DNA from: a virus
Length of the DNA: 41,600 nucleotides
Direction: 5' to 3' (one strand)
Virus record (IMG/VR): IMGVR_UViG_3300005842_000025
Coordinates: 1 to 41,600 of that record
The stretch's first letter is position 1. Each line of letters begins with the position of its first letter. Positions 5,483 through 40,875 of the stretch are shown here, piece after piece. The notes under the pieces were generated by a model. It was not told the origin of the DNA. It was given only the letters and a program-made list of their open reading frames with translations, and did no database searches. A program made the translations under genes and the position numbers.

Positions 5483-6249
5483 TATATTATTTTAAATTGT
5501 GTTACTTTAAGATCATCTATATCCTTCACTGAATTAGTACAATAAAAACTATCTATATGTTCAGTGAAATCTATTCCTTTATTAAAATAAGCATGAGAGA
5601 TATAAAGAAAAACTTTAATTGCACCTTGTTCTTTAAGTTGTTTAGCTAATAAATGAAAAGTATAACCTCCATCTAAAATATCATCAACTATTAAACAATT
5701 CTTACCTTTAACATCACCTAATATATTAAGTGTAACTTCACCCTTCAAATTCCTAAATTTATTAGCTGCAACTAAAGGTAAATTTAAATCTTCTGCATAT
5801 TTAAATACCTTCTTATAAGCTCCAGCATCAGGACTAACTAAAATTAAATCATCTGTTTTACAGTTTAAAAATGAATTTTTAATATAAAATATAGAATCCT
5901 TAACATAACTAAATGAACTAATCTTTTCTGAATTATTAATTAATGCCAAACTTACGTCACTATGAGGATCAAAGATTTTAACTCTATTAAAATTCATTGA
6001 ATTAATAAAATCACATATAATTTTTAATCCAAATGATTCATTTTCACTAAATCTTCTATCAGATCTCTGACCAAATAAACAAGGAATAAATAATTCTTTA
6101 TATTTTAAATGATTTGTATAATCAGATATTTCTTTTATTGCTTTTAATACAAATAAATCTTCATAAGAATTTATTCTCATAGATATTTTTGATTCAACAT
6201 CACTTATTTGAACATTTACTTGTCCATCTGGATATTTTATTACTTTCAT
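5482..6249 (-). CDS. PRPP synthetase-like pyrophosphokinase (possible ADP-ribose pyrophosphokinase, Adps)
   Basis: The 255-residue protein has the ribose-phosphate pyrophosphokinase signatures: RSDRRF (nucleotide-binding region), KIFDPHSD (metal-binding His/Asp), LVSPDAGAYKK, and the PRPP loop LIVDDILDGGYT. It is shorter than cellular Prs (about 310) and its N terminus is reduced. Cellular Prs makes PRPP from ribose-5-phosphate. The phage relative Adps pyrophosphorylates ADP-ribose for NAD+ reconstitution. Pairing with the Nampt-like gene in one operon fits the latter, but provision of PRPP to a true Nampt remains possible. Confidence 0.85.
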   Translation of the reverse strand: MKVIKYPDGQVNVQISDVESKISMRINSYEDLFVLKAIKEISDYTNHLKYKELFIPCLFGQRSDRRFSENESFGLKIICDFINSMNFNRVKIFDPHSDVSLALINNSEKISSFSYVKDSIFYIKNSFLNCKTDDLILVSPDAGAYKKVFKYAEDLNLPLVAANKFRNLKGEVTLNILGDVKGKNCLIVDDILDGGYTFHLLAKQLKEQGAIKVFLYISHAYFNKGIDFTEHIDSFYCTNSVKDIDDLKVTQFKII

Positions 6250-18332: not shown

Positions 18333-18691
18333 AATAATAATAATTTTTTATTTAATTTATTTTCTTGTTTAATTGGACTTTCTAATTTATATGGACTTGT
18401 TGGACTATATTGACTTCTATCAAAACCTCTAAATGGATCAGTACCTATTCCACCCCAATCTCTGATATCATCATTATGATCATCTTCTGCACAAACAGAC
18501 ACTATATAAGGTCTAATACTAGAAAGTGGACCACCATTCATTAAATCTTGATATTTTCTTCTCAAATCATAATTTGTTTGAGGACTTATTTTATATCTCA
18601 TACCTGTTTGATATTCTTGTATAAAATAACCATCAGTAGTAATTGTTACACTATTTAAAAAATCTAGTAGATTAATATTAATTACTTTCAT
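18329..18691 (-). CDS. Unknown protein, 120 residues
   Basis: The first 60 residues are beta-rich; then an acidic motif (CAEDDHNDDIRDWGG) and a Pro/Ser/Tyr-rich stretch (FDRSQYSPTSPYKLESPIKQ) look disordered. It ends in NKKLLLL. No family recognised. It overlaps the GIY-YIG gene end by 14 bp. Confidence 0.6.
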   Translation of the reverse strand: MKVININLLDFLNSVTITTDGYFIQEYQTGMRYKISPQTNYDLRRKYQDLMNGGPLSSIRPYIVSVCAEDDHNDDIRDWGGIGTDPFRGFDRSQYSPTSPYKLESPIKQENKLNKKLLLL

Positions 18692-19325
18692 TTATTTTGA
18701 TGTTATTATCTATTTTATATCTAAAAATATACTTTCTTGGTTTTATTAATCCTTTTAATTCAGAACATTGTTTTGATATACAAGCAATTGAAATACCTAA
18801 TTGTCTAGAAGTTTCAGAAATAGAATCAAATTCATAAAGAAAGTTAAATTTAGAATCATAAACAATTATTGCCTTACCTTGTAATAAAGTAGTTCTTTTT
18901 TTTAATGATTCAATTCTTTCTTTAGAAAATTTTTTACCTCTCCAAAAATCACCTACTTTCTTTTTAAATTCTTCACTTCTTGTTACTCCAATAGATGAAT
19001 AGGCATTTTTACAAATATTATATCCAATCTTTCTGTTATAGCATTTGGTAATATCTAACCAATATTGTTCTCTATTTAATAGACTTTCTTTTAATTCTAC
19101 TTCTTCAAGTATTTCAAATATAAAAGATTCTTCTCCATATTTGATCCAAGCTGATTGTAAATAAGGATTTTCATGTTCTTTCTTTCTTAATAAAGAAACA
19201 TGAGTTCCTATTCTTTTATCATAATATGATGCAGAACCAATATAAAATTTATTATTTACTATATTTATTATTTTATAAATAACATTTCTTTTTTTAAAAT
19301 AGATTGTTTGTTTATCTGAATTCAT
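18678..19325 (-). CDS. Free-standing GIY-YIG homing endonuclease
   Basis: The nuclease domain is at residues 13-95: VIYKIINIVNNKFYIGSA (GIY-YIG equivalent), then a conserved Arg in DKRIGTHVSLLRK and a HENPYLQSAWIKYGEESFIFEILE segment with the active-site Glu. A NUMOD3-like basic segment (RSEEFKKKVGDFWRGKKFSKE) and a NUMOD1/IENR1 module (AIIVYDSKFNFLYEFDSISE) follow. It has its own promoter, described separately, and interrupts the spacing of the replication operon, as free-standing homing genes do. Confidence 0.88.
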   Translation of the reverse strand: MNSDKQTIYFKKRNVIYKIINIVNNKFYIGSASYYDKRIGTHVSLLRKKEHENPYLQSAWIKYGEESFIFEILEEVELKESLLNREQYWLDITKCYNRKIGYNICKNAYSSIGVTRSEEFKKKVGDFWRGKKFSKERIESLKKRTTLLQGKAIIVYDSKFNFLYEFDSISETSRQLGISIACISKQCSELKGLIKPRKYIFRYKIDNNIKINESN

Positions 19326-20459: not shown

Positions 20460-21251
20460 TCATTTATTAGTATAAAACCACTTATAACCATAAGCAGTTT
20501 TTCTTTTTCCAGCTAAACATGTACTTATATTATAACCTTTAGATCTATCACCAACAGATAGTGCGGCAGATGATATACTATTAAAATAGGTTTTATTACC
20601 ATTAATATCCATACTATAAATAGATATACCTCCATGCTTTTCACTAGGATTACTCCAAACTCTAGCTTTAGATTTTTTATTAATTATTTTAAGATTTCTT
20701 TTTTGAGATTCATCTTTATATTTCCAAATATATCCTCCACATTTATTATAAATACCATTCATACATTTACATATATTTGTAGAAGCTAAATTATATTCTT
20801 CACATGCTTCTCTTATTGAATTCCATTCTTTTATAAACAAACCATCTAAACTGTATTGTAAAATTTTAATATGTCCACAATTTTTTTGTAAACTTCTGGC
20901 TTGCTTAATCTTCTTTATACTTTCTTCACTTTGTTTAGTATTCAATCTAAAATTTTGAGGACTAGAAGTTTTATTATATCCATATTTTAAATCACAGACA
21001 TTTAATATATTTATCCAATATTGCTCCTGACTTAAACAAAATTCTAATTCACATTGTTCAAGAATTTCAAATATAAAATTAGATTCTACATATTTATTCC
21101 AAGAAGATTGTAAATGTTTATTTGGATGTTTATTATTTCTTAATAATGATAGATGACAGTTCCACCTTAATTGAAAAGATTGTGTTGTGCTACCAAGATA
21201 AATCTTTCCATTTATAATGTTGGTAATTGTATAAATTCCTATATTTTTCAT
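20460..21251 (-). CDS. Free-standing GIY-YIG homing endonuclease with NUMOD modules
   Basis: The Met at 21251 is chosen (MKNIGIYTITNIINGKIYLGST) because the longer frame to 21266 would begin inside the -7 box of the promoter. The GIY-YIG domain at residues 3-95 includes the catalytic Arg (RWNCHLSLLR) and Glu (FIFEILEQ). Two NUMOD1/IENR1-like modules follow: ILQYSLDGLFIKEWNSIREA and a second ISIYSMDINGNKTYFNSI, each ending in GYxWKY or GYKWFY. Confidence 0.88.
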   Translation of the reverse strand: MKNIGIYTITNIINGKIYLGSTTQSFQLRWNCHLSLLRNNKHPNKHLQSSWNKYVESNFIFEILEQCELEFCLSQEQYWINILNVCDLKYGYNKTSSPQNFRLNTKQSEESIKKIKQARSLQKNCGHIKILQYSLDGLFIKEWNSIREACEEYNLASTNICKCMNGIYNKCGGYIWKYKDESQKRNLKIINKKSKARVWSNPSEKHGGISIYSMDINGNKTYFNSISSAALSVGDRSKGYNISTCLAGKRKTAYGYKWFYTNK

Positions 21252-21255
21252 GCTA

Positions 21256-21286
21256 TAAATATACACAAAAATATATAAATTTACAA
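21256..21286 (-). promoter_or_regulatory. Promoter of the 20.5-kb GIY-YIG gene
   Basis: TAAGTTGTAAA is followed 20 nt after TTG by TATATTTA, the same spacing and words as at 19357-19387 and 30870-30900. The -7 box lies only 4 nt from the ATG, so the transcript would be leaderless or nearly so. Confidence 0.65.
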
Positions 21287-25931: not shown

Positions 25932-26742
25932 CGTATTCTATCTTAAAATCATTAAGTTTGAATTTTTGAGTACCTAAAGTTTTGAAATATTCATTAATCT
26001 TATTTTGAAATTGAGATTTTATCATATAAGTAAATCTATCTTTAACTTGAGGATTAGTAACAACAGCTAAAGAACTATCTATTCTCGGTAATAAATCATG
26101 TAATCCAAAACCTAAATTAAGTGTATCAAAATAATTTCTTATGATATTTTTTTTGTCATAAGAACTAACCTGAGCTCCTTTATTATGATATAAATATAAT
26201 ATCCATTCCCAATTATTCTTTAAATCACTTCCAACTATCATATTAATAGCTAATTGATGATTATCAGCATGACTACTATCAATTAACTCTTTTAATGTAG
26301 AATAACTCTCAATATCAATTATATAACCATTATTTAAACTATCATTGAGTTTATTTTGATTAACATATTTAACTTCTTGTTTTCTATCTATAAAATCTAA
26401 TATTAAATCAATTGTATCTTGAATTTCACATGATTCATTATAAATTCCATATACAACTTCTTTAGTATCATTATCAACTATATTTGTTCCATCAAAATAT
26501 TGAGGATAATTTGATAAATTAAACTTATTAATAATTACATAATCAGCTTTTTCTTTCTTTATTACTCTTGATATTTTCTTTCCACAATAATCAGTTATTA
26601 AACGATTAACTGTAGTATTTTTTGTAAAATAAATACAACTATCATTGTCTATTTCAATATTATATGTTACCCAAATCTGATTAATATAATCGAATAAATC
26701 TTGATCTATAAATTTATTATTTCCACTTATTACTATTCTCAT
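25918..26742 (-). CDS. Unknown protein B of a tandem paralogous pair
   Basis: The 274-residue protein has the corresponding segments ADYVIINKF, SHADNHQLAINMIVG with NNWEWILYLYH, and SQFQNKINEYFKT..FKLNDFKIEY, matching protein A in order and spacing. It is probably an old tandem duplication. It directly precedes the MoxR-type ATPase in the operon (contact at 26742), so both may be clients or partners of the AAA+/VWA pair. Confidence 0.65.
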   Translation of the reverse strand: MRIVISGNNKFIDQDLFDYINQIWVTYNIEIDNDSCIYFTKNTTVNRLITDYCGKKISRVIKKEKADYVIINKFNLSNYPQYFDGTNIVDNDTKEVVYGIYNESCEIQDTIDLILDFIDRKQEVKYVNQNKLNDSLNNGYIIDIESYSTLKELIDSSHADNHQLAINMIVGSDLKNNWEWILYLYHNKGAQVSSYDKKNIIRNYFDTLNLGFGLHDLLPRIDSSLAVVTNPQVKDRFTYMIKSQFQNKINEYFKTLGTQKFKLNDFKIEYDATK

Positions 26743-27962
26743 TATTTTACCATATATTTAATAAATTCAGGATTTCCAGCTAATAATTGAGAAAATGTAT
26801 TATTAATTCCTACAGTCTGCTTAACCATTAAATATTTTTGATCTACACTAAAACTTGGATGTAAAATTAAAGCTAAATATTGTTTAATATTATCTTTACT
26901 TACAGTTTTTTGATTAAATCTCATATAATTATACATACGTGTAGTTAATATGGCTGCTGTAGCTGCTTTCCAATTGCTACTATCTTTCTCACTATCTCCG
27001 CAACATTGTGTTAATTGAGATTTAGCTGTTTTTTCATCATATTCTTTAATTAGTTTCTCAACACTTGGAAGTTTATCTAATTTCTTATTAACAAAATTAA
27101 TTAATTGACTAGTTAAATCTTTACCTACTGATATATCTCCATAAGTAGATATTATATCTAAATGTTTATCAAAATCATCAATTGTACTCACTAAACTAAA
27201 AAACTTATCCATCATTCTGGGACTAACATTTCCACTTGCACTAATTCCTTCAGCTTTTTTATTTTCTAATAGTTCAGGAGCCCATAATACAAAATTAATT
27301 AAACGTTCATCTAAACCAATTTTTTCAGCCCTTTCAGCCCAATCCTTAGCATCCCATACCATATTTACTTTAACCATCCTAGAAGCATGAGCTGCATCAA
27401 CTGTTTGAACATTATATTCTCCATCATCTGGATTTTCAGACAATATAACTTGAATCTTTTTATCTTTTAAATCCCAACCAATCATAGTTCCCTCATTACA
27501 GATTTCCATAACTGATTGCATTAGTAATTGATTACCTCTACTAAAATCATCTAAACACAATATTCCATTTTCTTTCAAATTAACAACCCAATCTGGAGGA
27601 CAAGCAGATGTTTTACTTAATGTAGTTCTTTGATAACCTAATTTACTATATTCAGGAATCATATTTTCAGTACACCATATACTATCAGTACCACTTTTAG
27701 CCATTTCATATTCTTTAGTATAAAATCCAACTAATTCAGATGGTTCTGTAATTTGTGATAAATTTAATTTAAAAAAATCTCTACCTAATTCTTCAGCTAA
27801 TTCTCTAATAACTGTAGTTTTTCCAATTCCATGAGGTCCAACTACAGACATTGAAATTGGAATTCCACCTTTATTAATTATTTTATCATTTGAATCTATT
27901 AATTGTTTTAATAAATTATATGTTTCTGTAGGTTTATATGTTGTTTGTTTAATTACACTCAT
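26742..27962 (-). CDS. MoxR-type AAA+ ATPase
   Basis: Walker A is VVGPHGIGKTTVI, Walker B is NGILCLDDFSRGN, and sensor 1 is VILSENPDDGEYN. The HASRMVKVNMVWDAKDW segment corresponds to the MoxR sensor/Arg-finger region. At 406 residues it is of usual MoxR length. MoxR ATPases work with VWA proteins, often encoded beside them, to remodel or insert metal in client proteins. The VWA partner is encoded 1 kb upstream in the same operon. Confidence 0.88.
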   Translation of the reverse strand: MSVIKQTTYKPTETYNLLKQLIDSNDKIINKGGIPISMSVVGPHGIGKTTVIRELAEELGRDFFKLNLSQITEPSELVGFYTKEYEMAKSGTDSIWCTENMIPEYSKLGYQRTTLSKTSACPPDWVVNLKENGILCLDDFSRGNQLLMQSVMEICNEGTMIGWDLKDKKIQVILSENPDDGEYNVQTVDAAHASRMVKVNMVWDAKDWAERAEKIGLDERLINFVLWAPELLENKKAEGISASGNVSPRMMDKFFSLVSTIDDFDKHLDIISTYGDISVGKDLTSQLINFVNKKLDKLPSVEKLIKEYDEKTAKSQLTQCCGDSEKDSSNWKAATAAILTTRMYNYMRFNQKTVSKDNIKQYLALILHPSFSVDQKYLMVKQTVGINNTFSQLLAGNPEFIKYMVK

Positions 27963-28800: not shown

Positions 28801-28981
28801 TTATAGCTTTAGCAATTAAAAAATTATCAAGATCTTCAGATTTCATCAAATCATCAATAAAATTTTGTTCCTCTTTAGAAAAATTAATATTAAGATAGGA
28901 AATATGACTTACTCTATCATCATTGTCTAATTTATACTGAAATACAGTTTCTTTATTATTTTTATAACCTAATGAATACAT
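28775..28981 (-). CDS. Small unknown protein, 68 residues
   Basis: It is acidic with LNINFSKEEQNFIDDLMKSEDLDNFLIAKAIID. The ATG overlaps the VWA gene stop by one base. The FIDDLM..D..NF.IA.AII pattern is faintly shared with the 86-residue neighbour (DLLVNSESKNDQDLIIAAHIL), so the two may be related. Confidence 0.55.
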   Translation of the reverse strand: MYSLGYKNNKETVFQYKLDNDDRVSHISYLNINFSKEEQNFIDDLMKSEDLDNFLIAKAIIDNKNENG

Positions 28982-29967
28982 TAATTTTCTTTTGGAATTT
29001 TAATCCATTTTCCACACCCTTTAATTACTTCTTCTGATCCATTACTACTAATTACCCATAATAAAGTTTTATTTGTTTTAATTTCAGGAACTTCTGCATG
29101 ACCATCAGTAAATATTAAACAAGTTTCATATTGTTTTTGTTTATTATAAAATTCAATACAAGGAGTAAAATAAGTTCCTCCACATCTACTTCTTATAAAA
29201 ATATTTGAATTAGCTTTATATTTAACTATTGGTCCTACTTCTGTATCAAATGCTCTAATCTCTAAATCGGTTGTTTTACTTAAATGCGCAATCTCATTCA
29301 GAAAGTCCAATAATTCAGGTTCACTAACAGAACCAGACTCATCAATAAGAACTAGCACTTTATTTTTAGGTCTTAAAACTATCTTGGGAGATCCAGGAAA
29401 TCTTTGATTTTCTCTTAATTTAGTTGTTTTAATAAAATATTGCGTTGAATTACCAACAAAATTTCTTATGTACTTCTTATAATTAAATTTTGGTTTAGGC
29501 TTTTTAAAGCCTTTAATTAAACTACTTATTTCAGCAGGAATATGTCCTTGAGATTTTTCTATCTCTTCTACTATACTTTCAATTGTATGTTCAACCTGAA
29601 CTCTTATAGCATCCTTTTGACTATCTGATAATGGATCATTTGATATATTTCCTTCTCCATCAACTACTATCCAATGATGTTCAGCTTTTTCATCAATTCC
29701 TATTTCTTCCTTTTGTTCATCTGAAAGTTTACCTAATTCTTTATAATAATGATCTCTTCCAGCATTTGCTTTCCAATCTAAATCTGGATATTTAGTTTTA
29801 AAATCATCTATAAATATTCCCCAACTTGGTAATTGACTCTTATTAATTGTTTGATTAATCTCTAAATCACAAGCTATATTATCCATTTTAGAATTAGAAT
29901 ACATATCCATTGTAATTAAATGAAACAAACAAAGATGCTTTGCTTCATGACTGAGGCATTTTGTTAA
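28981..29967 (-). CDS. Metallopeptidase-like/VWA protein, 3' exon
   Basis: After splicing, the frame continues LTKCLSHEAKHLCLFHLITMDM..NIACDLEINQTIN, giving an HExxH motif (HEAKH) followed by the N(I)ACD segment of DUF2201-type proteins. The C-terminal ~130 residues are a VWA domain with MIDAS residues: LIDESGSVS (DxSxS), GGTYFTP and IFTDGHA. Joined to the 5' exon the protein has 400 residues. VWA partners of MoxR ATPases bind clients through the MIDAS. Without intron removal the frame is closed just upstream (TGA at 29977-29979), so a TTG start at 29928 is not needed. Confidence 0.85.
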   Translation of the reverse strand, partial: LTKCLSHEAKHLCLFHLITMDMYSNSKMDNIACDLEINQTINKSQLPSWGIFIDDFKTKYPDLDWKANAGRDHYYKELGKLSDEQKEEIGIDEKAEHHWIVVDGEGNISNDPLSDSQKDAIRVQVEHTIESIVEEIEKSQGHIPAEISSLIKGFKKPKPKFNYKKYIRNFVGNSTQYFIKTTKLRENQRFPGSPKIVLRPKNKVLVLIDESGSVSEPELLDFLNEIAHLSKTTDLEIRAFDTEVGPIVKYKANSNIFIRSRCGGTYFTPCIEFYNKQKQYETCLIFTDGHAEVPEIKTNKTLLWVISSNGSEEVIKGCGKWIKIPKEN

Positions 29968-29998: not shown

Positions 29999-30835
29999 TT
30001 AATCCTCATTTGTAGGATTGTGTATTATAGTCTCTGAACGTCTTGGTATATAATTAAAAAATTTAATTTTCTTTCTTTCCATACATAAACAATTATCATA
30101 ATAGAAAAAATCCCTTAATCTAATAGAGTCGAAACCTCTAAAATTAATTGTATATAATGGATTTTTTCTATTTTTTGTTACTTCATGAAAAGATTTTAAT
30201 TTTACAGGTAAAAATATTAATAATTGTTTTATAAATTCTTTATTAGCACATACAAAAGTTGAACCTAACAAAGTTCTTGTTTTTTGTCTACTTAAAGGAT
30301 TAGATACACTACCATCACCATCCCATAAACCTCTACAAAAATCCCCAATATATTCTTTTGGAATAATTGGAAATTTTAAATTCATGGTTTTATTAGGAGT
30401 TAATCCAAAAGATTCTAAATCTTTTCTCATTTGATGAGAACTTATTTTTAATTTATAAATATATTTATTATATTTTTTATGATGTTCTTTATTAATTATA
30501 CCAGTAAAATTAAACTCCTTTTTAATATCTTCTAATATTTGTAAATCAATATTAGAAATTATAAAAGATCTTTTATCTTTAGTTGGTAAATTTCCATCTG
30601 TATAAATTAAACCTAAAATATAATATTTATTTGAAGAGTCATTTGATTTAGAAAAGTAATTATCATTTACTTTATAAATCTTTTTTTCTCCAACTTTTCT
30701 ACTTATATTTAATTTTTTGGCATAAGACCATATTGTCTTATTATTTAATTTATATTTACTTGTAATTTGATTAATAGTCAAATTATCATAATCCCGTTTA
30801 AATTCTTCTAAATTTGTAATATTCTTAAATTTCAT
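29999..30835 (-). CDS. Intron-encoded LAGLIDADG homing endonuclease
   Basis: It has 278 residues with two LAGLIDADG motifs, LGLIYTDG (about residue 75) and RGLWDGDGS (about 170), so it can act as a monomer. The N terminus has a helix-turn-helix (NLTINQITSKYKLNNKTIW). The gene lies between intron core elements Q and R, and its 3' end overlaps the R element, so coding and ribozyme sequence share bases. It should cut intronless alleles of the VWA gene near the HExxH codons. Confidence 0.9.
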   Translation of the reverse strand: MKFKNITNLEEFKRDYDNLTINQITSKYKLNNKTIWSYAKKLNISRKVGEKKIYKVNDNYFSKSNDSSNKYYILGLIYTDGNLPTKDKRSFIISNIDLQILEDIKKEFNFTGIINKEHHKKYNKYIYKLKISSHQMRKDLESFGLTPNKTMNLKFPIIPKEYIGDFCRGLWDGDGSVSNPLSRQKTRTLLGSTFVCANKEFIKQLLIFLPVKLKSFHEVTKNRKNPLYTINFRGFDSIRLRDFFYYDNCLCMERKKIKFFNYIPRRSETIIHNPTNED

Positions 30836-33656: not shown

Positions 33657-33910
33657 ATTCTTGATTTATATAATACTAGGTCTGATTTTCTAACTCTTCT
33701 ATAACTATTTAAACACTTATTGTTGACATCTAATAATTCTATTATATAATCCCAAGAATCCCACGATAATAAACCACTACAATTACAATGACTTGTAAAA
33801 TTTTTAGGAACTATTTTAACATTTTGCTTACCACCTTTTCCAATATTTCCAACACCATTTCCTCCATTATTAGTAGCAATACATATATCACTAATTTTAA
33901 ATTTGCTCAT
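33641..33910 (-). CDS. Small protein ending in RICQIY (variant of the KIIQIY tag)
   Basis: The 89-residue protein has a Gly/Asn-rich N-terminal loop (ATNNGGNGVGNIGKGGKQ), a Cys pair (CNCSG), and a C-terminal beta stretch ending YKSRICQIY. The last six residues differ from the KIIQIY tag of six neighbours at two positions. Its last 16 bases overlap the DNA polymerase start in another frame, which constrains this tail. Function unknown. Confidence 0.65.
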   Translation of the reverse strand: MSKFKISDICIATNNGGNGVGNIGKGGKQNVKIVPKNFTSHCNCSGLLSWDSWDYIIELLDVNNKCLNSYRRVRKSDLVLYKSRICQIY

Positions 33911-34178
33911 TTTCTATATTTATTTCTTTATGATCTATACTATTAAAAATTTCTTTTGTTCCTTTATATTCTTTAAGATTAAATTTATTCATATGATAAA
34001 TTTGTTTTAAAAGAAATAAATAATCATATACAATTTTTTTAATATCTTCAGACTTATTAAAAGGATTAAAAAATATATTACTTTTAAAACCAATTATTGA
34101 TTTTTTAAAATCTTTTTTATATTTTCTTGGAAGTTTAAAAGACCTAACTAATTTTGTTTTCTTTGTTATTTTTATCAT
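33897..34178 (-). CDS. Small basic unknown protein, 93 residues
   Basis: Very Lys-rich N-terminal half (KITKKTKLVRSFKLPRKYKK), then KKIVYDYLFLLKQIYH and an acidic C terminus. No family recognised. It may bind nucleic acid. Confidence 0.6.
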   Translation of the reverse strand: MIKITKKTKLVRSFKLPRKYKKDFKKSIIGFKSNIFFNPFNKSEDIKKIVYDYLFLLKQIYHMNKFNLKEYKGTKEIFNSIDHKEINIENEQI

Positions 34179-34187
34179 TTTTATTAA

Positions 34188-34457
34188 TCATATTAAAAAG
34201 TTTATATTATTATCATTAATATTTGATTCTTTCTCTTGTTCATTAATATCATTAATTAAACTATGTACATTTTCAATTAATTGTTTAAGCTTTCTATTCT
34301 TAAACTTTAAATTTCTATTATTAAGAATATCTAAACTCTCATCATATAATTCAATTGGCATTTTATTATATAACTCAAGTTTAGCTTTCTTAATTTCTTT
34401 TAAATTAATTAAATTTAATGCTATTTCATAATGATTTTTTATTAAATTTTCATTCAT
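34188..34457 (-). CDS. Small helical unknown protein, 89 residues
   Basis: Coiled-coil-like sequence (LNLINLKEIKKAKLELYNKM, then LNNRNLKFKNRKLKQLIENV). Its ATG overlaps the stop codon of the KIIQIY-tagged gene just upstream (TAATG). Confidence 0.6.
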   Translation of the reverse strand: MNENLIKNHYEIALNLINLKEIKKAKLELYNKMPIELYDESLDILNNRNLKFKNRKLKQLIENVHSLINDINEQEKESNINDNNINFLI

Positions 34458-34660
34458 TAATATATCTGTATTATTTTATTAGATTCATTTAAATTTCCTT
34501 TATATATCCAAGTTCCATCATTAATCTTATTTTGAATTGATTGTTGATTCCAACCACTAAAGACTTGATACTTAGTAGTTTTAAACTTTTTATCAGGATC
34601 ATACAAATATTTAATATCATTTATTAAAACAATAGAACCTTCTTTAATTACATTATTCAT
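34457..34660 (-). CDS. KIIQIY-tagged small protein 1
   Basis: The 67-residue beta-rich protein (GSIVLINDIKYLYDPDKKFK, then VFSGWNQQSIQNKINDGTWIYKG) ends in KIIQIY, coded AAA ATA ATA CAG ATA TAT. The INDGTW element before the tail recurs as LNDGTW in the tagged protein at 35126-35356. Function unknown. Confidence 0.7.
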   Translation of the reverse strand: MNNVIKEGSIVLINDIKYLYDPDKKFKTTKYQVFSGWNQQSIQNKINDGTWIYKGNLNESNKIIQIY

Positions 34661-34826
34661 TTTCTTTTAATGTTTGATTGTTATTAACTACAAAAACTTT
34701 ATCTGAATTGATTTCAAATCTAGGTAAACAATGAATTCCTTCTTTTAAATGTAATTCTTTCTTAATAAATTTGCCATACTTCTTTAAATCTTTACCTTTC
34801 ACTTGTTTATAATCTATTTCCAACAT
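34653..34826 (-). CDS. Small basic protein, 57 residues
   Basis: ATG 34826 to TAA 34653, overlapping the next start by 8 bp. The N-terminal half is Lys-rich (DYKQVKGKDLKKYGKFIKKEL), then ...CLPRFEINSDKVFVVNNNQ. No family recognised; the overlap and even spacing support coding. Confidence 0.55.
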   Translation of the reverse strand: MLEIDYKQVKGKDLKKYGKFIKKELHLKEGIHCLPRFEINSDKVFVVNNNQTLKENE

Positions 34827-34844
34827 AATTTTAGTTTTTATTTA

Positions 34845-35126
34845 TTAATATATTTGTATTATTTTATTACATTTAAATGATTCAAAAGAAAGCCATCCAC
34901 TTTTTCTAACTTCTTTTAACCAATTAATTTCTTTATATGTAGCTTTTCTAATATTTTCTAAGGAGCAAAACTTATTACTATTATTATGAACATATTCTTC
35001 ATTCTTACACGCAGCAAAAATAGCCTTTGTATTAGTTTCATTTATACCATTAAATATGAATACATATTTGTGAACACTATTAAAATAATGATAATATTCT
35101 CCTATAATTAATTCTTCTTTTTTCAT
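34845..35126 (-). CDS. KIIQIY-tagged small protein 2
   Basis: The 93-residue protein has an N-terminal beta domain (GEYYHYFNSVHKYVFIFNG) and a RKATYKEINWLKEVRKSGW helix, a combination common in small phage proteins. It ends FKCNKIIQIY (AAA ATA ATA CAA ATA TAT). The start overlaps the stop of the tagged gene upstream. Confidence 0.7.
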   Translation of the reverse strand: MKKEELIIGEYYHYFNSVHKYVFIFNGINETNTKAIFAACKNEEYVHNNSNKFCSLENIRKATYKEINWLKEVRKSGWLSFESFKCNKIIQIY

Positions 35127-35356
35127 TAATATATCTGTATTATTTTTGAATGTTTTTTAACAACTTTCCATGTACCATCATTTAACATATCTAACTGTCT
35201 TGCTATAGATTCCTTATTTATACCACCATCTAATACTGCTTTAGAAATAACAAGTCCAAGTCCAAAATTAATTGATTTTATAATATAACTTCGATCTTTA
35301 CTATAATACCATTCTAAACCTATAATATTATTTACATTATATTCTTCTTTCTTCAT
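35126..35356 (-). CDS. KIIQIY-tagged small protein 3
   Basis: The 76-residue protein carries GLEWYYSKDRSYIIKSINFG, then LDMLNDGTWKVVKKHSKIIQIY (tag codons AAA ATA ATA CAG ATA TAT). The DGTWKVV beta strand directly before the tag resembles tagged protein 1. It is followed directly by tagged protein 2 (one-base overlap), so two tagged genes stand in tandem. Confidence 0.7.
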   Translation of the reverse strand: MKKEEYNVNNIIGLEWYYSKDRSYIIKSINFGLGLVISKAVLDGGINKESIARQLDMLNDGTWKVVKKHSKIIQIY

Positions 35357-35517
35357 TTACTTATATTTTTAGTATTTTTACATTTAGGATAATTAAAACA
35401 TCCAAGAAAATCTATATTTGTATTACTATTCTTTCTTAACATCCAATTAGATCCACAAGAACATTTACCATATATTTTATCAAATCTATGTTTTATATTA
35501 TAATTCTTTTTAAACAT
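35353..35517 (-). CDS. Small topoisomerase-type C4 zinc ribbon protein, 54 residues
   Basis: ATG 35517 to TGA 35353, overlapping the next ATG. The pattern CSCGSNWMLRKNSNTNIDF, then LGCFNYPKCKN is that of the C4 zinc ribbon repeated at the C terminus of topoisomerase I (CxCG..M..R....G.FxGCxxYPxCKxT). No topoisomerase domain is attached, so it is a stand-alone DNA-binding ribbon. Confidence 0.7.
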   Translation of the reverse strand: MFKKNYNIKHRFDKIYGKCSCGSNWMLRKNSNTNIDFLGCFNYPKCKNTKNISK

Positions 35518-35555
35518 TATTATAATTTTTAAATTAATAATTTATTTAATTAAGC

Positions 35556-35625
35556 TGTCATATTAAGAATCGAACTTAATATCTCTATCATCCTAGGAGT
35601 AGACTCTACCATTGAGTTAATGACA
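35556..35625 (-). tRNA. tRNA-like element with non-canonical anticodon arm
   Basis: The D arm is perfect (ACTC AATGGTA GAGT), and the T arm is perfect with a classic loop (TTAAG TTCGATT CTTAA). The acceptor stem pairs TGTCAT with ATGACA (6 bp plus one mismatch). The middle, CTACT CCTAGGAT GATAG, pairs only imperfectly (one C/A mismatch, one T/G) and leaves an 8-nt loop, so the anticodon is uncertain (AGG or CCT readings are possible). It may be a real phage tRNA with an expanded loop, a decayed tRNA, or a tRNA mimic. Confidence 0.5.
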
Positions 35626-35639
35626 TACCATTATTTATA

Positions 35640-36053
35640 CTAGTTTAAACTAAGAACTTCTTCTTGTTTTTTAACAACAGTTGTAGCAATTACATGACCT
35701 TGTTGTTTAAGAATAGTTTCTAGTTTCTCTCCTCTAAGTAATATTAGAGAATAACTATCTACCATTCTCTCTCCAACTTGATAAGGAGCTACTTTTACAT
35801 TTAAAAATTGACCAGGAATTTCCCTGTTTTCAGCAATAAATTGCTTCATTATTGAAGGATCTCCTGATTTCCAAATACAATCTGTTCCAGCATCATTTAC
35901 ATGAGATTGAAACACATTCCTTTGACGCATTTCTGCTAAAGGATTATTTGGATCCATGAAATAAAGTGTATAAAATTGACGGTTTTTCTTTGTGTCTTTA
36001 ATTCTTTTTTCTGTTTTAATTTCAGACATTCTAATTGGTTTTACTGTTTCCAT
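35640..36053 (-). CDS. Unknown phage protein with long structured leader
   Basis: The 137-residue protein includes FYTLYFMDPNNPLAEMRQRNV, IPGQFLNVKVAPYQVG and SYSLILLRGEKLE. The alternating hydrophobic pattern suggests a beta-barrel (possibly OB-like) fold, but no family is certain. It ends at TAG. Codon choice is less A/T-biased than its neighbours, and it has its own leader and probable promoter, both of which suggest strong expression. Confidence 0.7.
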   Translation of the reverse strand: METVKPIRMSEIKTEKRIKDTKKNRQFYTLYFMDPNNPLAEMRQRNVFQSHVNDAGTDCIWKSGDPSIMKQFIAENREIPGQFLNVKVAPYQVGERMVDSYSLILLRGEKLETILKQQGHVIATTVVKKQEEVLSLN

Positions 36054-36252
36054 AATGTTTTTGTTTTTTTTGTTATATTTTATTATTTTTATGATAATTT
36101 ATTATCATATGCACTTATATTTATAATGCCATAAGTTTCACATTTGTCCTTATTTTAAAGATATAGACTAATATCTATTAATAATATACAATTACAACTA
36201 TCTCTGTGGTTTGTCCCATCTATATAGAGAATTTATATATTATTTAATGCTT
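36054..36252 (-). promoter_or_regulatory. Promoter and structured 5' leader of the 36.0-kb gene
   Basis: This gap has no open frame. A possible promoter is AGTTGTAAT (TTG at 36195-36197) with TATTAGTC 21 nt on. Downstream come AGATAT/ATATCT, ACTTAT/ATAAGT and a 9-bp hairpin (TATGATAAT, AA, ATTATCATA), then an A-rich run before the ATG. The leader would be about 110-120 nt, long for this genome. Confidence 0.5.
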
Positions 36253-36345
36253 TTAATCTCTTTTAGTAACAAAGTATGCTAATCCTAATAGTACTACAAT
36301 CCAAAATGTTGAATCTATTAGTTCTATAATTACTTTTTCTGTCAT
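36253..36345 (-). CDS. Tiny single-span membrane protein, 30 residues
   Basis: The ATG at 36345 overlaps the stop of the lipoprotein gene (ATGA). The sequence has one hydrophobic helix (FWIVVLLGLAYFV) after an acidic N terminus and ends TKRD, suggesting an N-out, single-pass peptide. Phages use such peptides as holin-like or host-takeover factors; function here unknown. Confidence 0.55.
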   Translation of the reverse strand: MTEKVIIELIDSTFWIVVLLGLAYFVTKRD

Positions 36346-36551
36346 CTTATTGTATCTCCTATATAATATTTTTTGTTTGTAAAATAATTTAATCCTCCTT
36401 CTAAATGAACTATATACTTATAGCCACTATAAACAGAATTATTAGTTTTATTATTAGTTTCAACTCCTGTAATCACCAATGGACTTAACATAAAACTTTC
36501 ACAAGAACATAAAAATATTGCTAATAATATTACTAATATTTTTGTTTTCAT
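36342..36551 (-). CDS. Small lipoprotein, 69 residues
   Basis: The signal peptide KILVILLAIFLCSCES has a lipobox-like LCSC, predicting a lipid-anchored Cys at residue 15 or 17. The mature part is short and polar (VYSGYKYIVHLEGGLNYF). Lipoproteins in phages often act in superinfection exclusion or lysis; nothing decides between these. Confidence 0.65.
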   Translation of the reverse strand: MKTKILVILLAIFLCSCESFMLSPLVITGVETNNKTNNSVYSGYKYIVHLEGGLNYFTNKKYYIGDTIR

Positions 36552-36910
36552 TTTTCTACAGGTTTAGATTCATTCCAATTTTTCTCTATTTCTAAATTTA
36601 CTTTTGCTATTTTATCTCTATCATCTTTATATCTTTGAGAATAATAAATAGCTTTACCATAATGAGAGTTTAAATTATCATTTATATACACACCATCAAT
36701 GAATTTTTCTCCATCTTTCATAACTTCTATTTGATGATACCTAGTAGCATATAAGCTTTCTTTAGAATTCATATAAAACCAATTCCAAGAATATAATTCT
36801 TGTCTTCTTTTTAATAATTTTGATTTCTTAGATTCTTTGAAAGCTATTAAATTACTATTTTCATCAATTTTGAAATTGACACCATTTAATGTTATTATTT
36901 CTTCGTTCAT
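36548..36910 (-). CDS. Unknown protein, 120 residues, related to its upstream neighbour
   Basis: It starts MNEEIITLNGVNFKIDENS and contains YHQIEVMKDGEKF; the 117-residue neighbour starts MDDEEIIKIQGAGQFKFKD and contains FIEVMKDNGKKY. The shared EEII..xG..FK and IEVMKD segments at similar order point to distant paralogy. Otherwise unknown. Basic middle, acidic end. Confidence 0.6.
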   Translation of the reverse strand: MNEEIITLNGVNFKIDENSNLIAFKESKKSKLLKRRQELYSWNWFYMNSKESLYATRYHQIEVMKDGEKFIDGVYINDNLNSHYGKAIYYSQRYKDDRDKIAKVNLEIEKNWNESKPVEK

Positions 36911-37217
36911 AGTTTATATTAAGTTTTTGCAATATATTAACACTATATTCATATTTTTTCAACTTCTCTTCTATATTATTAAGAGATGTAGAAGAATTAA
37001 AATGATATTTAATCTTATCAGGATCTATTTTACATTCTTCATATAATAATTTAATTTTATTATATTTTTTACCATTATCCTTCATAACTTCAATAAACCA
37101 ATAAGGATGATTAGATGGTAAATCTTTAATAAGATGCTCATTAATATTACAGTTTTTCAAATCTTTAAATTTAAACTGTCCAGCACCTTGAATTTTTATT
37201 ATTTCTTCATCATCCAT
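36864..37217 (-). CDS. Unknown protein, 117 residues
   Basis: This is the presumed paralogue of the 120-residue protein (shared EEII..G and IEVMKD segments). The remainder is Lys/Asn-rich helix (KIKYHFNSSTSLNNIEEKLKKY). It overlaps the downstream gene by 47 bp. It is the first gene after an intrinsic terminator. Confidence 0.6.
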   Translation of the reverse strand: MDDEEIIKIQGAGQFKFKDLKNCNINEHLIKDLPSNHPYWFIEVMKDNGKKYNKIKLLYEECKIDPDKIKYHFNSSTSLNNIEEKLKKYEYSVNILQKLNINYERRNNNIKWCQFQN

Positions 37218-37243
37218 AATTTAATTATTAAATATTAATAAAA

Positions 37244-37300
37244 ATACAATAACCAAAACAATATAGCAATTAAATTGTAATATTATTAAGGTTATTGTAT
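37244..37300 (-). terminator. Intrinsic terminator with long hairpin
   Basis: An 11-bp outer stem (ATACAATAACC with GGTTATTGTAT) encloses inner stems AATAT/ATATT and CAATT/AATTG, giving one extended 57-nt hairpin. On the minus strand it is followed by TTTTTATTAAT. It separates the tagged gene at 37.4 kb from the 37.2-kb gene. Confidence 0.7.
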
Positions 37301-37364
37301 ATAAATCAACTTTACCTATTGATTTTGAGAACACAACATTAAAGTTGAGCACAAGACGTTTAAA

Positions 37365-37595
37365 TTAGTAAATCTGAATTATTTTCTTTGGTTTTGATAC
37401 TATTTTAGCCCAAACACCTTTATAATAAAGAAATCCACTACCTCTTCCTCCATCTATATTATTATCAGTATAAAATTGATATGTGTTAGGAGTAGTTTTA
37501 TTTATTGTAAAAGTACAAAAATTATTAGGACAAATAAATTTAGTACCATTGGGATAATCCTTCCTAGCTTTAATTAATAATTCTTCATTTGTCAT
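37365..37595 (-). CDS. KIIQIY-tagged small protein 4
   Basis: The 76-residue protein has a helical start (NEELLIKARKDYPNGTKF), then FTINKTTPNTYQFY and GSGFLYYKGVWAKIVSKPKKIIQIY. Tag codons are AAA ATA ATT CAG ATT TAC, the most divergent set, which shows selection on the peptide. A GVWAKIV strand precedes the tag as DGTWKVV does in protein 3. Confidence 0.7.
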   Translation of the reverse strand: MTNEELLIKARKDYPNGTKFICPNNFCTFTINKTTPNTYQFYTDNNIDGGRGSGFLYYKGVWAKIVSKPKKIIQIY

Positions 37596-37609
37596 TATAA
37601 TAATATAAA

Positions 37610-37643
37610 ATATAAGAGAACATATTTCTACATTCTCTTATAT
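37610..37643 (-). terminator. Intrinsic terminator after the coiled-coil gene
   Basis: ATATAAGAGAA and TTCTCTTATAT form an 11-bp stem around a 12-nt loop, followed on the minus strand by TTTTATATTATTAT. It ends the 37.65-kb gene before the tagged gene at 37.6 kb. Confidence 0.75.
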
Positions 37644-37653
37644 TAATTAATAA

Positions 37654-38142
37654 TTATTTACTTAAAATTTCTTTTAATGTAACACCAATACTTTCTAGTC
37701 TTGCTTTCTTTTTAGCTTCTTCAGAAAGACATTCTTCTAAAGCTATTTTAGTTTTCTTTAATTTCTGTAATTCTTCTTCATGAGTTACATTAGCATATTG
37801 TTCTAAAATAGCTTCTTGCCACTCACCAACAGTTCCACCTTCTTCCATATATTCCTTCAATTGTATTGGAGATACAGCAAGAAATTTATCTCTATTTTCT
37901 TCAATTGCTGCTCCTTTCTTTGTAATATAAGCATATAATTCTTGAAGCTTATTAACATCTTTAACTTCTGAAAGAGTTTCTCCCATTAGTTGACCACTAA
38001 GTCTTGATTTTTTCTCTTTGCTACCTGTTAATTGAGAAATTCTTTCAGTAATTTGTTTTAACATTGCTGGAATTCCTTCTTCAGTAATATTAAATTGTCC
38101 TGATAATGCTACTTCATTTGTTGCTTTTACTGTTTTTGCCAT
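37654..38142 (-). CDS. Coiled-coil phage protein, 162 residues
   Basis: The N terminus is Thr/Val-rich, then long amphipathic helices with Leu/Ile heptads (MLKQITERISQLTGSKEKKS, LQELYAYITKKGAAIEENRD, LQKLKKTKIALEECLSEEAK). It has balanced composition and its own terminator, suggesting good expression. No family recognised; an oligomeric or DNA-associated role is possible. Confidence 0.65.
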   Translation of the reverse strand: MAKTVKATNEVALSGQFNITEEGIPAMLKQITERISQLTGSKEKKSRLSGQLMGETLSEVKDVNKLQELYAYITKKGAAIEENRDKFLAVSPIQLKEYMEEGGTVGEWQEAILEQYANVTHEEELQKLKKTKIALEECLSEEAKKKARLESIGVTLKEILSK

Positions 38143-39345: not shown

Positions 39346-39753
39346 TTAACAATATCTAGGCAAATTAGCTCTAGTTTTATTTTTACTATATTGATTACCT
39401 GATTTCATTAAACCAATACTATAAGCATGTTTCTTGTTATCTGAATCAGAACACCATTCTAAATTATCTTTACAATTATCTTCTTTATTCCCATTTTTAT
39501 GATTTAATTGAGGCAAATTAAAAGGGTTAGGTATGAATAATTCTCCAACTAACCTATGTATTCTTAATGTTTTACTTGAATTTCCTTTAGTTACTGTAAA
39601 TCTAAAATATCCAAATTTATCTGCGTTTAATTTAATTGGTTTGCCTTTTAATAAAACCTTGTTTTTAGAACATCTGTCTAAACTTCTTGCATTGCCAAAA
39701 TTGCTTATTTGATATAAGTTTTCATAGTTTGGGACATCTTTCCATTGTTCCAT
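39346..39753 (-). CDS. HNH homing endonuclease (NUMOD4-HNH)
   Basis: The N-terminal WKDVPNYENLYQISNFGNARS is the NUMOD4 DNA-binding module, followed by the RIHRLVGELFIPNPFNLPQL segment and the HNH core NHKNGNKEDNCKDNLEW. At 135 residues it is a complete small member. It is bordered on both sides by structured, gene-free DNA. Confidence 0.88.
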   Translation of the reverse strand: MEQWKDVPNYENLYQISNFGNARSLDRCSKNKVLLKGKPIKLNADKFGYFRFTVTKGNSSKTLRIHRLVGELFIPNPFNLPQLNHKNGNKEDNCKDNLEWCSDSDNKKHAYSIGLMKSGNQYSKNKTRANLPRYC

Positions 39754-39774
39754 TTTTTACTTTTTTAAATAAAA

Positions 39775-39800
39775 ACTACTCCACCTTACAGGTAAGTAGT
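39775..39800 (-). terminator. Intrinsic terminator upstream of the HNH gene
   Basis: On the minus strand, ACTACT..ACCT pairs with AGGT..AGTAGT around a 4-nt loop (6 bp plus about 4 bp), followed by TTTTTATTT. It would end transcripts covering the structured segment at 39.8-40.2 kb before the HNH gene. Confidence 0.55.
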
Positions 39801-40200
39801 GAGCTCATTTGTGTTGTAGAGCATAACCTTCTCTCTCTTGGGTTAATAATCCCTTTCTCAAGGGAACAACACATCTAATATTTCTATTAGTATCTTTATG
39901 TAAATTAGAGTTATTCTATTGATATATAATCAATTCTTTATTCAGTATCACTACTGGCAGTTTTAAGCTTTTATAAGCCTCAATTAAGAGAAATTATTCT
40001 AGCACCTCTATCTGATTGTCCCAGATTAATTTACATCAGGATCAATGTTTAGCCTGTAATATGGCACCGCGGCTCAAAGTTGTAAAGTTTATTTTTCTCT
40101 ATCTCGTAATAATGTACACTTATCCAAACTAGTATTTTTAAGCGTATATCTATTACTCCAGAGTTACCACCTTAAAGTGTTATGAGCCTTGGTATGTAAG
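39801..40200 (-). ncRNA. Structured RNA candidate between GIY-YIG and HNH genes
   Basis: This is the longest gene-free stretch, clearly richer in G and C than its surroundings. It holds a three-way-junction pattern: TGTGTTGT/ACAACACA (39810-39817 and 39866-39873, plus strand) enclosing TCCCTT/AAGGGA (39850-39865) and AACC/GGTT. Further hairpins include ATTGAT/ATCAAT and ATCTG/CAGAT. The word AATTGAGGC and GACAATCAGA recall group I intron 5' and core elements, but I cannot assemble a full core. A terminator follows at 39775-39800. Confidence 0.5.
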
Positions 40201-40206
40201 TATAGA

Positions 40207-40875
40207 CTATCTGTCCATTTCTAAGTATTTTAATACTTCTTCTTCAACTTTTGAAGAAAATAAAACATTACTTTTTCCATTTGTCTTTTTTCTAATTATA
40301 AACAATCCTTTATTATAAGTATAACCCTTTCTTTTTGATTTCCCTTTAACTTTAATCAAATTAGTTATTTCATTCCATTGTCTTCCATTTTTAACACCAA
40401 AATGAATTTGTCTACTATAGGTTGGATAGAATAATTTAATATCTTCAGTGGATTTATTTTCTTTTATTAATTTCCAAATATTTAACTTTTCTTCATTTGA
40501 AAATTTAGAAAACTGCCTACTCATTAATGATTTTCTTCTAATAATTTCTTCTTTAGAATAATTTTTTATTCCACTTCCTCCTAATCCACCATCAGAATTA
40601 TTACAAAGATTAGGAATAATTTTTCTGTAAAAATCAATCCAATAAATTTCTTTTTCTTGCCAATTACTTTCATTACAAATTTCTATAACTTCTATAATTG
40701 GAAGTAATCCAGAATTTATTAAATTGATTATCCAATTTAAAACATATCTTTTTCCTTTTGATTTTTTTGCTTCATATATGTGCCCATATAATCTTCTTTT
40801 TATATTGGTTGTTTTACCAATATATCTAATTAACCCATTTGGGTCTTTTAAACAATAAATGTATATTTTTTTCAT
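40207..40875 (-). CDS. GIY-YIG endonuclease, 222 residues
   Basis: The nuclease domain is at the N terminus: IYIYCLKDPNGLIRYIGKTTNIKRRLYGHI (GIY-YIG plus catalytic Arg and His), then LPIIEVIEICNESNWQEKEIYW with the active-site Glu. A SDGGLGGSG loop and NUMOD-like basic segments follow (YSKEEIIRRKSLMSRQF, GRQWNEI). An 11-bp inverted repeat flanks the gene (40203-40213 and 40924-40934), its left arm overlapping the 3' end. Confidence 0.85.
   Translation of the reverse strand: MKKIYIYCLKDPNGLIRYIGKTTNIKRRLYGHIYEAKKSKGKRYVLNWIINLINSGLLPIIEVIEICNESNWQEKEIYWIDFYRKIIPNLCNNSDGGLGGSGIKNYSKEEIIRRKSLMSRQFSKFSNEEKLNIWKLIKENKSTEDIKLFYPTYSRQIHFGVKNGRQWNEITNLIKVKGKSKRKGYTYNKGLFIIRKKTNGKSNVLFSSKVEEEVLKYLEMDR

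What the first reader, a model, noticed from the sequence alone, without database searches (positions are those of the whole stretch)
35556..35625. tRNA-like gene with an 8-nt anticodon loop
D and T arms are textbook, but the anticodon arm has mismatches and an 8-nt loop with the palindrome CCTAGG. Expanded loops are known from frameshift-suppressor tRNAs; decay or tRNA mimicry are alternatives. A decoy for host anticodon nucleases would fit the RNA repair genes in the same phage.
Basis: partly seen in the sequence, partly recalled or inferred. Interest (0 to 1): 0.5.

Follow-up and report, generated by a model that had tools for sequence, protein, structure and literature searches.

The report
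Non-decoding tRNA-like element between phage genes
A crAss-like phage carries, between two co-directional genes, an RNA element shaped like the outer half of a tRNA but without a usable anticodon arm; some related phages place tRNAs and tRNA look-alikes just ahead of gene starts, as if the host's tRNA-trimming enzymes were meant to cut the phage's long messages there.

Summary
On the minus strand at 35555-35625 lies a tRNA-like element (RF00005 25.9 bits, cut-off 29) with D, T and acceptor arms but no canonical anticodon arm. It is not chance: a finder for acceptor + T arm (+ D arm) scores it 17.3, and four Markov controls of 17 records gave nothing at 17 or above. In a sister lineage (L003-L005) the same slot holds a diverged element in which 5 of 12 acceptor/T pairs changed on both sides and still pair, again without a canonical anticodon arm. 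A frameshift suppressor, anticodon-nuclease decoy or plain decay therefore fits poorly. In five named Suoliviridae genomes 25 of 25 finder hits (9 ARAGORN-called, 16 not) point the same way as the next gene, and 21 end within 60 nt of its start (random mean 0.5, maximum 4). Best reading: 'tRNA punctuation', RNA-processing signals built from tRNA genes. This is inferred: there are no RNA data, RNase P's preferred U(-1) is not kept, and in a held-out Steigviridae genome 0 of 4 isolated hits lay so near a start. Ten literature searches listed no such report in phages.

The parts
35555..35625 (-). tRNA-like element (71 nt, acceptor to discriminator G)
   Evidence: RF00005 25.9 bits; finder score 17.3, no control hit at 17 or above
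35619..35625 (-). acceptor stem, 5' strand TGTCATT (6 pairs with 35556-35562, T7.T66 mismatch)
   Evidence: sister lineage has 7 of 7 pairs, with two-sided changes at pairs 5 and 6
35603..35617 (-). D arm ACTC-AATGGTA-GAGT
35580..35602 (-). middle segment where an anticodon arm would be (CTACTCCTAGGATGATAGAGATA); no canonical 5-bp/7-nt arm
   Evidence: partly similar in sister lineage (shuffle p about 0.017)
   Evidence: not kept in L003
35563..35579 (-). T arm TTAAG-TTCGATT-CTTAA
   Evidence: three of five pairs changed on both sides in sister lineage
35555..35562 (-). acceptor stem, 3' strand TATGACA, and discriminator G; followed by C at 35554 (position 74)
35640..36053 (-). upstream co-directional gene (137 aa, no Pfam or PHROG match at E 0.01); its stop lies 14 nt before the element
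   Evidence: found in five contigs L002-L006
35353..35517 (-). downstream co-directional gene (54 aa, Zn_ribbon_Top1); its ATG lies 37 nt after the element
   Evidence: PF01396 35.4 bits, cut-off 32; 90.7% identical in L015

Best explanation
The element is a non-decoding tRNA-like structure kept for its acceptor-T-arm half and its 3' end, inside a run of co-directional phage genes. Most likely it is an RNA-processing signal ('tRNA punctuation'): in a long polycistronic phage transcript it folds into the acceptor/T stack that host tRNA-end enzymes recognise, and they cut there (RNase Z or another 3' enzyme just after the discriminator base, RNase P at the 5' side). That releases the upstream message with a defined 3' end and leaves the downstream message with a new 5' end 37 nt before its start codon. 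Shown by computation: the fold, its maintenance by two-sided changes between two lineages, the lack of a canonical anticodon arm, and, for related Suoliviridae, sense orientation and position just before start codons. Inferred: transcription, the cuts, the enzymes and any benefit to translation or mRNA stability.
For: (1) Same site, sister lineage: 5 of 12 acceptor/T pairs change on both sides and remain paired, one mismatch is replaced by G-C, and neither copy has a canonical anticodon arm; the sister copy scores 35.4 bits, above the cut-off. (2) Finder on 17 phage records, ordinary tRNAs included: 96 hits at score 14 or more against 1.25 per equal length in Markov controls. (3) In cr1_1, cr10_1, cr4_1, cr52_1 and cr50_1, 25 of 25 hits are in the sense of the next CDS, 24 of 25 overlap no CDS by more than 25 nt, and 21 of 25 end within 60 nt of the next CDS start: 9 of 9 ARAGORN-called and 12 of 16 not called. 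Random placement: mean 0.53, maximum 4 in 2000 trials; among random placements that are intergenic and sense, 17%. (4) The slot before DNA polymerase holds an element in 5 of 5 of these genomes, 16-20 nt before the start codon: a canonical tRNA-Val in cr1_1, a 59-mer without anticodon arm in cr52_1, odd forms in the others. (5) Position 74, not used by the finder, is C in 22 of 25 isolated elements not called by ARAGORN (background 0.156), as in clustered ARAGORN-called tRNAs of crAss001/cr106_1 (29 of 30) and Panino (16 of 16). (6) Held-out cr118_1: both hits at 14 or more are sense, 50 and 34 nt before a CDS. (7) Window element: 14 nt after a stop, 37 nt before an ATG, C74.
Against: No transcript or cleavage data. 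U(-1), preferred by E. coli and B. subtilis RNase P (PMC4919922, passage) and present in 28 of 30 and 14 of 16 clustered ordinary tRNAs, is found in 8 of 25 isolated non-ARAGORN elements, about background, and is A in the window. The pre-noted prediction that most held-out isolated hits lie within 60 nt of a CDS start held for 2 of 2 in cr118_1 but 0 of 4 in the Steigviridae phage cr112_1 (63, 279, 386 and 234 nt; two are ARAGORN-called tRNAs, two candidate Y RNAs), so 2 of 6 in all, though 6 of 6 are sense. cr118_1 also lacks an element before its polymerase, and one of its two hits has C at position 73, not 74. In the Steigviridae crAss001, cr106_1 and phi14:2 the isolated elements also sit 188 nt or more from the next ORF of 80 aa or more, or overlap an ORF. 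The position test is passed best by ARAGORN-called tRNAs, so it does not itself prove a non-decoding role. The window copy has a T.T mismatch, a sub-threshold score and a more stable alternative fold. The middle segment is partly conserved between the two lineages, which punctuation does not predict.
Confidence: 0.45

Rival explanations
1. A small stable tRNA-like RNA that acts in trans (sRNA, decoy or scaffold): the acceptor/T/D half gives tRNA-like ends and stability, and the middle is the working part.
For: The middle is unrelated between close relatives L046 and L047, whose upstream flanks and arms are nearly identical; several elements carry 60-100-nt inserts; the middle segment of the window element is partly similar in the sister lineage.
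Against: Position just before start codons in five Suoliviridae (21 of 25) is not needed for a trans-acting RNA; at the polymerase slot the middle has no evident common sequence, and in cr52_1 only 8 nt remain there.
Confidence: 0.23
2. An ordinary phage tRNA gene that is decaying.
For: The window copy has a T.T mismatch and a sub-threshold score and no ARAGORN call; some slots hold canonical tRNAs in other phages (cr1_1 tRNA-Val).
Against: Two-sided changes that keep pairing in acceptor and T stems of the sister copy; acceptor stems with 6 or 7 of 7 pairs in 25 of 25 and T stems with 5 of 5 in 24 of 25 isolated non-ARAGORN elements (partly by the finder's own selection); C74 kept in 22 of 25.
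Confidence: 0.17
3. A frameshift-suppressor or other decoding tRNA with an expanded 8-nt anticodon loop.
For: An 8-nt loop can be drawn by eye on the sequence.
Against: The stem then has a C.A mismatch and a T.G wobble and the second loop base is C, not U; the sister copy has no canonical anticodon stem.
Confidence: 0.03
4. A decoy for host anticodon nucleases that works with the phage RNA ligase and kinase.
For: RNA ligase and a P-loop kinase-like protein are in the window.
Against: The would-be anticodon loop is not kept as a loop at the same site; a decoy should keep it.
Confidence: 0.04
5. A Y RNA (YrlA type, Ro60 partner) with a tRNA-like module.
For: crAss001, cr112_1 and cr106_1 have about 140-nt tRNA-like elements near a TROVE (Ro60) gene.
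Against: No TROVE match in the window, in its 89.7-kb relative G004 or in the five Suoliviridae (the virus records may be fragments); the window element has no room for an extra stem.
Confidence: 0.03

Closest known systems
tRNA punctuation in animal and fungal mitochondria
   Same: tRNA structures sit between genes of long polycistronic transcripts and mark the cuts by RNase P and RNase Z (PMC4394434, passages seen).
   Different: There the elements are tRNA genes; here many elements have no canonical anticodon arm. Bacteriophage, not organelle; cleavage not shown.
t-elements of plant mitochondria (and mascRNA/menRNA in animals)
   Same: tRNA-like structures in longer transcripts that are processed by tRNA-end enzymes (PMC4919922, passage seen).
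   Different: Organelle or nuclear transcripts; not a set placed before many gene starts of one virus lineage; cleavage reported there, not shown here.
Bacterial Y RNAs (YrlA)
   Same: Non-decoding RNAs with a tRNA-like domain, described near Ro60 genes in bacteria and phages (recalled: Chen et al. 2014, not read).
   Different: They partner Ro60; no TROVE match in the window or its relatives searched.
Ordinary phage tRNA genes
   Same: Acceptor, D and T arms, C74, and some of the same genomic slots (tRNA-Val before DNA polymerase in cr1_1).
   Different: No canonical anticodon arm; U(-1) not kept.

Membership tests
tRNA (RF00005) | covariance score over the gathering cut-off | tested here: not met
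   25.9 against 29 bits for the window copy; 35.4 for the sister copies
tRNA (RF00005) | acceptor, D and T arms with T-loop consensus | tested here: met
   6 of 7 acceptor pairs, 5 of 5 T pairs, 4-bp D arm
tRNA (RF00005) | 5-bp anticodon stem with 7-nt loop and U33 | tested here: not met
   best reading pairs 3 of 5; sister copy 1 of 5; ARAGORN none
tRNA punctuation / t-element | tRNA-like structure between co-directional genes, in sense orientation | tested here: met
   window: 14 nt after a stop, 37 nt before an ATG; five Suoliviridae: 25 of 25 sense, 21 of 25 within 60 nt of the next start; but 0 of 4 within 60 nt in cr112_1
tRNA punctuation / t-element | determinants of tRNA-end enzymes (acceptor/T stack, R73-C74, U-1) | tested here: inconclusive
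   C74 in 22 of 25 isolated non-ARAGORN elements; discriminator A in 14 and G in 4 of 25; U(-1) in 8 of 25, not enriched
tRNA punctuation / t-element | cleavage at both ends by RNase P and RNase Z in vivo | not testable with these tools
   no RNA data
Y RNA (YrlA) | Ro60/TROVE gene nearby | tested here: not met
   PF05731 in 3 of 29 records (crAss001, cr106_1, cr111_1), none of them the window or its relatives; virus records may be fragments
tmRNA | tmRNA match | tested here: not met
   none by ARAGORN or Rfam at gathering threshold in the window
frameshift-suppressor tRNA | cloverleaf with conserved expanded anticodon loop | tested here: not met
   no canonical anticodon stem in the sister lineage

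The most novel reading that the evidence does not exclude
A lineage of crAss-like phages (Suoliviridae and relatives) runs a bacterial-virus version of tRNA punctuation: tRNA genes captured at gene boundaries were stripped of their anticodon arms, or had them replaced, and kept only as cutting marks before the starts of polymerase, primase, sigma-factor and other genes, so that the host's own tRNA-maturation enzymes cut the phage polycistronic messages.
Probability: 0.42. Interest if true: 0.78.

Novelty: new variant of a known kind. Interest (0 to 1): 0.6.

Why it matters
Single and 'pseudo' or undetermined tRNAs in phages are usually taken as translation helpers or as junk. If these elements are processing marks, they explain why some crAss-like phages carry isolated, anticodon-less tRNA look-alikes at fixed gene boundaries, give a route from tRNA gene to cis-acting RNA signal, and predict mRNA 5' ends that can be mapped in the transcriptome of any cultured phage with such elements. 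They also warn that tRNA counts and suppressor-tRNA inferences in these genomes can mislead.

Tried and rejected
Frameshift suppressor, anticodon-nuclease decoy, simple decay, Y RNA and tmRNA: see rivals. A tRNA with an intron was considered for the 112-144-nt elements; by eye the parts outside the insert do not make an anticodon arm, so I dropped it; not tested further. A strict first version of the finder missed many elements, the window's included, and was replaced by a scored one. cmscan did not report the sister element although genome search scores it 35.4 bits; I take this as a filter effect, untested. Searching viral contigs with the 137-aa neighbour and with the conserved flank as a DNA pattern gave only two allele types, so the two-sided changes at this very site rest on two lineages. 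The middle-segment motif has only one other match in the window, with two mismatches, within chance. Promoter-like matches in 35300-36150 are no more than shuffles give (7 against 7.5; two overlap the element on the opposite strand), and the one terminator-like site lies inside the upstream gene. L045 (29.9 bits) looks like a chance match in coding sequence (by eye). Window 34000-38000 has no nucleotide match among named phages, and the 137-aa neighbour has no relative there at E 0.01.

Rows dropped before counts: one search uses 38 of 96 finder hits (recount). Left out were 21 hits of W04 (Panino; 4 of them not ARAGORN-called), 23 of W09 and 11 of W11 in tRNA clusters (one of each not ARAGORN-called), 2 of W12, and W02:26610, which is part of a permuted tmRNA. 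The 25 non-ARAGORN elements left include three Y RNA candidates and the window's own. One search uses all 25 finder hits of five genomes (W07 without its last 3,665 bases); the annotated stretches had been chosen around earlier tRNA matches, but hold every hit found in those genomes.

Papers: PMC7886860, PMC12386605, PMC10136315, PMC4919922 and PMC4394434 were seen as abstract lines or passages only. Ten searches were made; searches returned no paper, and by title none of the listed papers of the others reports tRNA-like processing elements in crAss-like phages. The library lacks most subscription journals and all bioRxiv preprints. Chen et al. 2014 on Y RNAs is recalled, not read.

Full report
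What is there. The window is an IMG/VR virus record of 41,600 bases, 24% G+C, with crAss-like gene content: DNA polymerase, primase, Sak4-like protein, RNA ligase, NAMPT. Among the 40 best of 753 named-phage matches of its polymerase, at about 28-31% identity, are several Suoliviridae (cr1_1, cr10_1, cr55_1), mixed with other phages. On the minus strand at 35555-35625, between a 137-aa gene that ends 14 nt upstream and a 54-aa zinc-ribbon gene (PF01396) that starts 37 nt downstream, lies a tRNA-like sequence. It matches RF00005 at 25.9 bits, cut-off 29. ARAGORN sees no tRNA or tmRNA. The acceptor has six pairs and a T.T mismatch, the D and T arms are regular, and the stretch between them does not make a canonical anticodon arm. 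Folded alone, the RNA prefers another structure by 1.4 kcal/mol.

Is it more than chance? A finder that scores a 5-bp T stem with T-loop consensus, a 7-bp acceptor and an optional D arm gives 96 hits at score 14 or more in 17 phage records, ordinary tRNAs included, and 1.25 per equal length in first-order Markov controls; at 17 or more the controls give none in four replicates. The window element scores 17.3 and is the only hit of 8 or more in the window.

The sister lineage. Searching with the 137-aa neighbour found five contigs. L002 is identical over the element; L006 ends before it. L003, L004 and L005, identical to one another here, align to the window at 93-97% over 1.57 kb around the site, but their element is strongly diverged. 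Pair by pair, acceptor pairs 5 and 6 and T-stem pairs 1, 3 and 4 differ on both sides and stay paired, the T.T mismatch is a G-C pair, and six pairs are unchanged. The sister element scores 35.4 bits, above the Rfam cut-off, and has no canonical anticodon stem (best 7-nt-loop reading 1 of 5 pairs; a 4-bp stem with a 10-nt loop in the constrained fold). So the acceptor-T half is maintained while a canonical anticodon arm is not. The middle segment retains some similarity (p about 0.017 by shuffling), which I cannot explain.

Wider class. Four viral contigs related through the polymerase carry single tRNA-like elements of 112-139 nt, with acceptor, D and T arms and an unrelated insert where the anticodon arm belongs: L044, L046, L047 and L048. 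Of the other 20 records in that search, four had 21 or more RF00005 matches, one had a single likely chance match and 15 had none. L046 and L047 have nearly identical upstream flanks and arms but unrelated inserts. Named crAss-like phages show comparable forms: a 59-nt element in cr52_1 with 8 nt between D and T arms, hairpins with 4- and 6-nt loops in cr10_1 and cr50_1, a 124-nt element in cr4_1, beside canonical tRNAs.

Position. In cr1_1, cr10_1, cr4_1, cr52_1 and cr50_1, using the depositors' CDS, 25 of 25 hits at score 14 or more have the next CDS on the same strand, 24 of 25 overlap no CDS by more than 25 nt, and 21 of 25 end within 60 nt of that CDS's start: 9 of 9 that ARAGORN calls (two of these without a defined anticodon) and 12 of 16 that it does not. 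Random placement gives 0.53 on average and at most 4 in 2,000 trials; among random placements that are intergenic and sense, 17% are as close. The slot before DNA polymerase is filled in 5 of 5 of these genomes, with gaps of 16-20 nt. The slot before primase is filled in cr1_1, cr4_1 and cr50_1, and by a covariance match in cr52_1. The elements in the polymerase slot differ: a canonical tRNA-Val in cr1_1, odd forms elsewhere. Outside this family the rule is weaker. With ORFs of 80 aa or more, the isolated elements of crAss001, cr106_1 and phi14:2 lie 188 nt or more from the next ORF or overlap one, while those of Panino (4941), G007 and G015 (22219) lie 22-37 nt before one and a second G015 hit 178 nt.

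3' end. Position 74, which the finder does not use, is C in 22 of 25 isolated elements that ARAGORN does not call, against 15.6% background (two of the other three have C one base earlier), and in 11 of 13 isolated ARAGORN-called ones; clustered ARAGORN-called tRNAs show 29 of 30 (crAss001, cr106_1) and 16 of 16 (Panino). Bacterial RNase P pairs with R73-C74-C75, and the E. coli and B. subtilis enzymes prefer U at -1 (PMC4919922, passages). U(-1) is present in 28 of 30 and 14 of 16 of the clustered tRNAs, 7 of 13 isolated ARAGORN-called ones and 8 of 25 isolated non-ARAGORN elements, the last near background. This speaks for maintained 3'-end recognition and against a strong 5' constraint. I therefore regard the 3' cut, which would set the 5' end of the next message, as the likelier function.

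Held-out test. Before fetching six further accessions I noted the predictions. Only cr118_1 proved to be Suoliviridae. Its two hits at score 14 or more are non-ARAGORN, in sense, and 50 and 34 nt before a CDS; C follows the discriminator in one, and in the other it is one base earlier; it has no hit before its polymerase. The Steigviridae phage cr112_1 has four isolated hits (two ARAGORN-called tRNAs, two candidate Y RNAs): 4 of 4 are in sense and have C74, but 0 of 4 lie within 60 nt of the next CDS (63, 279, 386 and 234 nt). Over the whole held-out set the prediction on distance thus held for 2 of 6. Two Intestiviridae stretches and the two other Steigviridae stretches gave no hit at 14 or more. 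The pattern is lineage-bound on present evidence, and its independent support is one genome.

Interpretation. A Crassvirales review describes early and middle genes, which include the replication module, as driven by a virion-borne phage RNA polymerase and grouped in transcriptional modules (PMC10136315, passages). In long messages a tRNA-like acceptor/T stack is a ready-made cutting site, as in mitochondria (tRNA punctuation, PMC4394434, passages) and in t-elements (PMC4919922, passage). I put 0.45 on this reading for the window element. The main rival is a small tRNA-like RNA that acts in trans through its middle segment. Frameshift suppression, anticodon-nuclease decoy, Y RNA and tmRNA fit worse.

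Limits. No RNA data were available. The window copy is one of the weaker members of the class. The two-sided changes at this exact site rest on two lineages. ARAGORN-called tRNAs pass the position test at least as well as the odd elements, so the argument for a non-decoding role rests on the missing anticodon arms together with the kept acceptor, T arm and C74.

Noticed in passing
crAss001 (MH675552) 96203-96341 and 96453-96596; cr112_1 (L249) 41909-42050 and 42065-42202; cr106_1 (W11) 33830-33971: About 140-nt tRNA-like elements with a shared GAGTTACTTCAA motif, near a TROVE (Ro60) gene and not annotated in the crAss001 and cr112_1 records: candidate phage Y RNAs.
   Followed up: partly
cr50_1 39374-39869, cr10_1 26352-26737, cr52_1 81171-81551: Permuted tmRNA genes (annotated as SsrA) with similar tags (GNNFVTDYT..., GNTSYVTDYT...); RF04321 60.3 bits in cr50_1 and 49.6 in cr10_1 (cr52_1 not tested with it); in cr50_1 and cr10_1 a tRNA-like element overlaps the end of the annotated tmRNA.
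   Followed up: partly
window 3616-5097 and 5482-6249: Nicotinamide phosphoribosyltransferase (phrog_448) near a phosphoribosyl-pyrophosphate-synthetase-like protein: possibly an NAD+ rebuilding pair.
   Followed up: no
window 18678-19325, 20460-21266, 40207-40875, 39346-39753, 29999-30835, 3005-3559: Three GIY-YIG proteins, one NUMOD4/HNH-like and one LAGLIDADG protein, and an endonuclease VII-like protein, in 41.6 kb.
   Followed up: no
window 26742-27962 and 28981-29928: MoxR-like AAA ATPase and a VWA-like DUF2201 protein close together.
   Followed up: no
L023 7998-10477, L025 7998-10439: DNA polymerase split into two ORFs with a gap of about 0.3-0.4 kb, perhaps an intron.
   Followed up: no
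phi14:2 (KC821624) 1760-1850 and Maribacter phage Panino (PP540027) 4941-5032: Related tRNA-like elements with the shared inner sequence TAAATTCAACATAAA and a long variable-arm hairpin but no canonical anticodon arm; not called by ARAGORN.
   Followed up: no
L003 5427-5494: The Rfam cmscan tool did not report this element although genome search scores it 35.4 bits with RF00005.
   Followed up: no
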